A stretch of DNA of 64,000 bases from an uncultured Clostridia bacterium (GTDB lineage: Bacteria; Bacillota; Clostridia; Oscillospirales; Ruminococcaceae), in the NCBI GenBank assembly GCA_947588805.1, contig CANPYR010000002.1:35035-99034 (forward strand). The letters run 5' to 3'. Positions 1,152 through 55,354 of the stretch are shown one piece after another; position 1 is the first letter of the stretch, and each line of letters begins with the position of its first letter. A program made the translations under genes and the position numbers. The notes below the pieces were generated by a model. The model was given only the letters and a program-made list of their open reading frames with translations. It did no database searches and was not told the DNA's origin.

Positions 1152-1322
1152 GGCGCCCCGCCCAATTAGCGGCTAACGCCTTTTTGGCACATCCGCTTGC
1201 ATCTTTTCCGTCATATTTCACAAAAATCCTCGCTAATACACAAAGTATTAGCTCCGGTTTTTGCTTCATCTGACGAAAAATCTGACTGCGCGTCTGCACC
1301 AAAATAATTGTGCGGCGGCACC
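1152..1322 (-). repeat. MITE-like palindromic intergenic repeat, copy 1 (inverted relative to copies 2 and 3)
   Basis: Reverse complement aligns along its whole length with 10159-10330 (~90% identity by eye); imperfect terminal inverted repeats; internal hairpin GCTAATAC-ACAAA-GTATTAGC. Confidence 0.9.
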
Positions 1323-10148: not shown

Positions 10149-10158
10149 TATGTTCTAA

Positions 10159-10330
10159 GGCGTCACCGCACAATTATTTTGGTGCAGATACGCAGTCAGA
10201 TTTTTTGTCAGATGAAACAAAAACCGGAGCTAATACTTTGTGTATTCGCGAGGATTTTTGTGAAATATGACGAAAAATATGCAAGTAGATGCGCCAAAAA
10301 GGCGTTAGCCGCTAATTGCGCGGTGATGCC
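10159..10330 (+). repeat. MITE-like palindromic intergenic repeat, copy 2
   Basis: Inverted copy of 1152-1322; ends GGCGTCACCGCACAATTA / (rc) GGCATCACCGCGCAATTA; CTAA directly flanks both ends. Confidence 0.9.
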
Positions 10331-10367
10331 CTAAGTAAATCCCGAAGCTTGTATTCTAAAATTCAAT

Positions 10368-55233: not shown

Positions 55234-55333
55234 GGGCGTTGCCGAACGATTATTTTGGCGCATACACAATAAAAGCCGGTTTTATTCGCAGCTGTGCCAA
55301 AAAGGCGATATCCGCTAATTGTGCGGGGATTCC
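55234..55333 (+). repeat. MITE-like palindromic intergenic repeat, copy 3 (internally shortened)
   Basis: Shares termini (GGGCGTTGCCGAACGATTATTTTGGCGCA ... TGTGCCAAAAAGGCGATATCCGCTAATTGTGCGGGGATTCCC) with copies 1 and 2, lacks about 70 bp of the middle. Confidence 0.8.
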
Positions 55334-55354
55334 CACGGAAAGGATGATAAGAAA

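What the first reader, a model, noticed from the sequence alone, without database searches (positions are those of the whole stretch)
10159..10330. 172-bp palindromic intergenic repeat family (MITE-like), reference copy
Seen directly: this segment is the reverse complement of 1152-1322 along its full length, with one indel and roughly 15-18 substitutions by eye. The ends form imperfect inverted repeats: GGCGTCACCGCACAATTA on the left and GGCATCACCGCGCAATTA read inward from the right. A second shared block (TTTTGGTGCA / TTTTTGGCGCA) follows, separated on the right by a 12-13-nt insertion that contains TTAGC-C-GCTAA. The centre holds a hairpin, GCTAATAC-TTTGT-GTATtcGC, which is a perfect 8-bp stem in copy 1. 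CTAA directly abuts both ends here. In common orientation the left flank is YTAA in all three copies, so YTAA is either a target preference or part of the element. There is no transposase in the window, consistent with a non-autonomous element or a structured regulatory repeat. I do not recognise the family.
Basis: partly seen in the sequence, partly recalled or inferred. Interest (0 to 1): 0.8.

Follow-up and report, generated by a model that had tools for sequence, protein, structure and literature searches.

The report
IS5-driven hairpin MITE with RNA-like core
This is a 172-base non-coding jumping element, spread through many gut and rumen Clostridia by borrowed IS5-type transposases, whose interior is preserved as one strand-specific folded hairpin while its ends differ, which suggests the element carries a working RNA rather than being decayed transposon debris.

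Summary
Window 10159-10330 is a 172-bp element with terminal inverted repeats, a 4-bp CTAA target duplication and empty sites in sister species. The genome has 15 copies with the core, plus core-less relatives with the same ends. Full-length autonomous IS5-family elements with matching ends occur in relatives; none was found in the 86%-complete host genome.

The unexpected part is the interior. An inner core of about 85 bp recurs in 77/394 genomes of the order and 54/391 of the class. It sits under different IS5-type ends (GGCAACACCGCACAA, GGAAACACTGATTAAA, GGTCACCTCTAAAAAC and others), even within one genome, while total length stays near 172 bp. The fold is supported by covariation in 44 of 53 base pairs. 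On a strand-neutral pairing, isolated wobbles are G.U in 289 cases and A.C in 48, and the same strand folds better in 117 of 117 elements. Rfam and the paper library held nothing matching.

Best reading: a modular MITE family moved in trans by IS5 transposases, whose + strand is selected to fold, most likely as RNA in read-through transcripts. Mobility is well supported by sequence; the RNA role is inferred.

The parts
10159..10330 (+). 172-bp hairpin MITE, reference copy (core orientation +)
10155..10158 (.). left target-site duplication CTAA
   Evidence: sequence; relatives lack the insertion
10331..10334 (.). right target-site duplication CTAA
   Evidence: sequence
10159..10176 (+). left terminal inverted repeat GGCGTCACCGCACAATTA (IS5-type, class A ends)
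   Evidence: same kind of ends on autonomous IS5-family elements
10313..10330 (-). right terminal inverted repeat GGCATCACCGCGCAATTA
10299..10312 (+). approximate place of the asymmetric mini-hairpin (AAGGCGTTAGCCGC) in the right arm; covaries (G-C, C-G, U-A) and is absent from the 159-162-bp forms
   Evidence: helix 6
10192..10284 (+). conserved core hairpin (GTCAGATTTTTTGTCAGAT ... ATATGACGAAAAATATGCAAG), approximate limits, shared by elements with different ends
1152..1322 (-). second copy of the 172-bp form (171 bp), inserted between the T-box leader of tyrS and the tyrS start; site empty in six relatives
55234..55334 (+). core-less relative: same end type, different short interior

Best explanation
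The element is a non-autonomous MITE moved in trans by IS5-family transposases (DUF772 plus DDE_Tnp_1 type) that recognise its terminal repeats and duplicate a 4-bp YTAA-like target. Unlike an ordinary deletion-derived MITE, it is modular: interchangeable IS5-type ends enclose a conserved inner hairpin, with total length held near 172 bp. The + strand is under selection to fold from end to end. The most likely reason is that it acts as an orientation-specific folded RNA inside transcripts that read through it from neighbouring promoters, insulating or processing the message (for example as an RNase III substrate). Shown from sequence: copies, ends, target duplications, empty sites, autonomous partners with matching ends, the covarying fold, the strand asymmetry and the modular mosaic. 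Inferred: trans mobilisation, selection as the cause of the asymmetry, transcription, and the RNA role.
For: Copies: 15 core-bearing in the own genome and 99%-identical copies in same-genus species. Empty sites at both in-window loci. TSDs and boundaries in many genera. Autonomous IS5 elements with ends GGCRNYACCGCACAA or GGAANCACTGATTAAA and 4-bp TSDs (CTAA/CTAA in G352, TTAG/TTAG in G392 and G393, others imperfect); transposases NF033581. Modularity: core tree needs at least 13 end-class changes; within one MAG, A-ended and B-ended elements share 93% of the inner 85 bp but only 34-60% of the arms. Fold: 94% of cells paired and 44/53 pairs with double changes, against 75.7% and 27.6 in shuffles. 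Strand: + strand more stable in 117/117 elements; G.U 289 against A.C 48 on strand-neutral pairing, also in the variable arms (75 against 12) and ends (54 against 15).
Against: No expression data were available. No sigma-70-like promoter was found in or beside the reference copy. The elements share ancestry, so 117/117 is not 117 independent trials. A single-stranded DNA fold would also favour G.T over A.C. Overall orientation relative to neighbouring genes shows no clear bias. No IS5_4-type transposase was found in the own genome (86% complete). The elements meant as no-core controls turned out to be core derivatives, so the strand test has no independent negative control.
Confidence: 0.6

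Rival explanations
1. Ordinary IS5-derived MITE: the interior has no function, and its conservation reflects horizontal spread together with homogenisation of the palindrome by gene conversion between elements and between arms.
For: Long palindromes and repeat families undergo conversion. The A/B mosaic in one genome is equally explained by conversion of the core between two older end families. Near-identical copies across species show recent spread.
Against: The core recurs in 54/391 class genomes from many families, with compensatory changes in 44/53 pairs. Conversion is strand-symmetric and does not predict G.U over A.C at 6:1 or near-constant length across families.
Confidence: 0.2
2. The selected fold is single-stranded DNA (a cruciform or lagging-strand hairpin of the + strand) that aids transposition or replication-coupled insertion; RNA is irrelevant.
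For: G.T wobbles are also better tolerated than A.C in DNA. The ends themselves, which the transposase must bind, take part in the asymmetric fold (54 against 15).
Against: About 12% of the helix pairs counted as Watson-Crick or wobble are G.U, a level more usual for RNA (general knowledge). DDE transposition is generally held to act on double-stranded ends, and nothing fixes the strand of inserted copies relative to replication (general knowledge, not tested).
Confidence: 0.15
3. Strand-biased mutation rather than selection (for example deamination of one exposed strand) turned Watson-Crick pairs into wobbles.
For: A steady C-to-T bias on one strand would create G.U pairs.
Against: Both C-to-T and A-to-G type departures appear as G.U (A-U to G-U as well as C-G to U-G columns), which one deamination bias does not give; one U.G pair is kept in 32 of 35 diverse elements.
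Confidence: 0.05

Closest known systems
IS5-family insertion sequences (NCBIfam NF033581, transpos_IS5_4)
   Same: Same kind of terminal repeats and 4-bp YTAA-like target duplications; the autonomous elements of about 1.0-1.2 kb in relatives are the likely movers.
   Different: The MITE carries no transposase; resemblance was looked for, and seen, only at the ends.
Correia/NEMIS elements of Neisseria
   Same: Short hairpin MITE between genes whose transcripts fold and are cut by RNase III (PMC10969869, PMC2229807).
   Different: No sequence comparison was run here. A conserved core under several end families and strand-specific G.U bias are, to my knowledge, not described for Correia elements. 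RNase III cutting is untested here.
ERIC (enterobacterial repetitive intergenic consensus)
   Same: Short imperfect palindrome whose effect on neighbouring mRNA depends on orientation (PMC2229807).
   Different: Different hosts; not compared by sequence here. An autonomous partner with matching ends was identified for the present family.
BOX, RUP and SPRITE repeats of Streptococcus pneumoniae
   Same: Small interspersed repeats with predicted RNA structure (PMC3049150, PMC10969869).
   Different: Different hosts; not compared by sequence here. BOX is modular by repeat number (from memory); here the ends vary and the interior is constant.

Membership tests
MITE (miniature inverted-repeat transposable element) | short, no transposase gene, terminal inverted repeats | tested here: met
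   172 bp, TIR 14/16 matching; no reading frame kept open across family members
MITE (miniature inverted-repeat transposable element) | target-site duplication | tested here: met
   4-bp CTAA, TTAA, TTAT, TTTA and others
MITE (miniature inverted-repeat transposable element) | multiple copies with empty sites in relatives | tested here: met
   empty sites
MITE (miniature inverted-repeat transposable element) | autonomous element with the same ends | tested here: met
   found in relatives; not found in the own 86%-complete genome
MITE (miniature inverted-repeat transposable element) | actual mobilisation in trans | not testable with these tools
   needs a transposition assay
IS5 family (mobiliser) | transposase of IS5 type | tested here: met
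   NF033581 at 287-332 bits, cut-off 140; DUF772 and DDE_Tnp_1
IS5 family (mobiliser) | 4-bp target duplication of YTAR type (IS5 subgroup, from memory) | tested here: met
   CTAA and TTAG perfect duplications on autonomous copies; MITE targets are wider, e.g. TTAT, TTTA, TCAA
known Rfam RNA family | score above a family's gathering threshold | tested here: not met
   no match for the window copy or for eight loci of diverse relatives
structured RNA | compensatory base-pair changes supporting one fold | tested here: met
   44/53 pairs with double changes; 0/500 shuffles reach it
structured RNA | transcribed | not testable with these tools
   no expression data held
Correia/NEMIS-like RNase III-processed MITE | RNase III cleavage of the hairpin transcript | not testable with these tools
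   needs experiment

The most novel reading that the evidence does not exclude
The inner hairpin is a mobile non-coding RNA found across the class Clostridia that persists by riding whichever IS5 transposase a genome holds, exchanging terminal repeats while keeping its fold and a total length near 172 nt.
Probability: 0.3. Interest if true: 0.85.

Novelty: new variant of a known kind. Interest (0 to 1): 0.62.

Why it matters
MITEs are usually taken to be decayed transposons whose interiors drift. Here the interior is the conserved part and the ends vary, with strand-specific folding, in bacteria common in gut and rumen. If confirmed, it offers a tractable case for asking whether small transposons carry functional RNA, and how a hairpin can be shared among transposase families. 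The covariance model built here already finds it across the class.

Tried and rejected
A protein-coding reading of the + strand (one frame open to the end in 12 of 29 elements) was dropped because stops break it in most others. The elements in G332 and G352 meant as no-core controls were core derivatives with apex deletions, so they could not serve. A hammerhead-like internal loop was considered and dropped on reading the alignment, because in the other core subtype that loop is closed by pairing. Overall gene-orientation bias was not significant; only abutment on stop codons at the right end (14 against 3 within 8 bp, p = 0.013, crude ORF calls, post hoc) stood out. A search for paired class A ends 1-2 kb apart showed none among the places listed for 14 genomes (the listing was truncated); the autonomous elements were found through the transposase instead. 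Paper searches found no relevant holder of the sequences.

Full report
Observation. Window 10159-10330 is a 172-bp near-palindrome; its reverse complement recurs at 1152-1322 (92% over 168 nt). Folded as RNA it reaches -75.1 kcal/mol, z = -9.8. CTAA stands on both sides. A BLAST search of the own genome found 22 matching pieces and a covariance model of the core found 15 core-bearing copies: 11 of the short form and 4 of a 257-bp form. The window's third copy, at 55234-55334, has the same ends but another interior.

Mobility. Copies in the own genome carry 4-bp target duplications: CTAA, TTAA, TTAT, some imperfect. At 1152 the element sits between the T-box leader and tyrS; sister species run from terminator to ribosome-binding site without it. 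At 10159, between yajC and a TIGR04086/spoIIIAA gene pair, relatives join the two flanks directly or nearly so. This is insertion, not ancestral sequence.

The mover. The own genome has no paired class A ends at IS distance and no IS5_4-type transposase at E <= 1e-40, but it is only 86% complete. In relatives, a DDE_Tnp_1 search led to complete elements. G352 has a 1150-bp element, CTAA|GGCAGCACCGCACA ... GGCAATACCGCACA|CTAA, the MITE's own kind of end; G332 has a 1.2-kb element with ends GGAAACACTGAACAAA/GGAACCACTGATTTAA, close to the end type of that genome's MITEs. A wider search gave further class A elements (G340, G449, G186, G393) and class B elements (G392, G374). Transposases score 287-332 bits to NF033581, IS5 family; classes A and B are about 47% identical.

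The interior. Genus and family relatives often match only the inner part. With model R1 the core was found in 77 of 394 genomes of the order (51 of 168 genera) and 54 of 391 of the class (32 of 223 genera, E <= 1e-5). Named hosts include Ruminococcus flavefaciens FD-1, many rumen Ruminococcus MAGs and Oscillospiraceae, Subdoligranulum variabile and gut phage records. Ends vary widely but length clusters at 170-173 bp, or 159-162 bp without the side mini-hairpin. On a core tree of 92 elements, three end classes need at least 13 changes, at least 5 forced by well-supported branches for class A (few columns, many forks unresolved). In one MAG (Lapin-021 bin38), A-ended and B-ended elements are 93% identical over the inner 85 bp and 34-60% over the arms. 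This mosaic means either exchange of ends or conversion of cores.

Selection on one strand. In 35 elements (34 of them chosen to be under 82% identical, plus the window copy), 94.0% of cells in a 53-pair fold are standard pairs (shuffled 75.7%), 44 pairs have double changes, and sliding the partners drops pairing to 37-44%. The alignment was not fitted to the structure, but the structure was predicted from it. On a pairing that scores G.U and A.C alike, single wobbles flanked by Watson-Crick pairs were G.U 289 and A.C 48 in 70 dereplicated elements, in every segment. The + strand was more stable in 117 of 117. Shared ancestry means these are not independent, and no independent negative control was available.

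Mechanism. Trans mobilisation by IS5 transposases is well supported by sequence but not demonstrated. The strand asymmetry points to selection for + strand folding; that the folded molecule is RNA is inferred from the high G.U share and from precedents in Correia and ERIC elements, whose transcripts affect neighbouring mRNA (PMC2229807, PMC10969869). No sigma-70-like promoter was seen at the reference copy, so transcription would come from neighbours.

Novelty. No Rfam family matched and the open-access paper library held none of six diagnostic sequence strings in a relevant paper; most subscription journals and ISfinder were not searchable. As a MITE it belongs to a known kind; the constant interior under changing ends with strand-specific folding is the unusual feature.

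Noticed in passing
55234-55334: Core-less relative with the same end type but a different interior; the own genome also has longer elements of this second type (G000:C3:56218, G000:C15:7039) and four 257-bp chimaeras carrying both interiors (L012-L015).
   Followed up: partly
1152-1322: The element lies between the T-box leader and the tyrS start, antisense to tyrS, about 25-30 bp upstream of the start codon; effect on T-box control unknown.
   Followed up: no
G332 (L390-L403): Over 200 end matches; the sampled elements are core derivatives with deletions or foreign inserts at the hairpin apex, and many contig ends fall about 80 bp from an end match.
   Followed up: partly
L151 (G387:C30:7816-8619): Three core copies spaced about 348 bp apart in the same orientation, as in a direct array.
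   Followed up: no
loci: Right ends abut gene stop codons more often than left ends (14 against 3 within 8 bp, p = 0.013; crude ORF calls, post hoc).
   Followed up: partly
L168, L192, L199-L201, L204, L209, L231 (genus g113): G+C-rich relatives of about 158-163 bp whose arms differ between copies yet stay self-complementary, mostly without a clear 4-bp target duplication.
   Followed up: no
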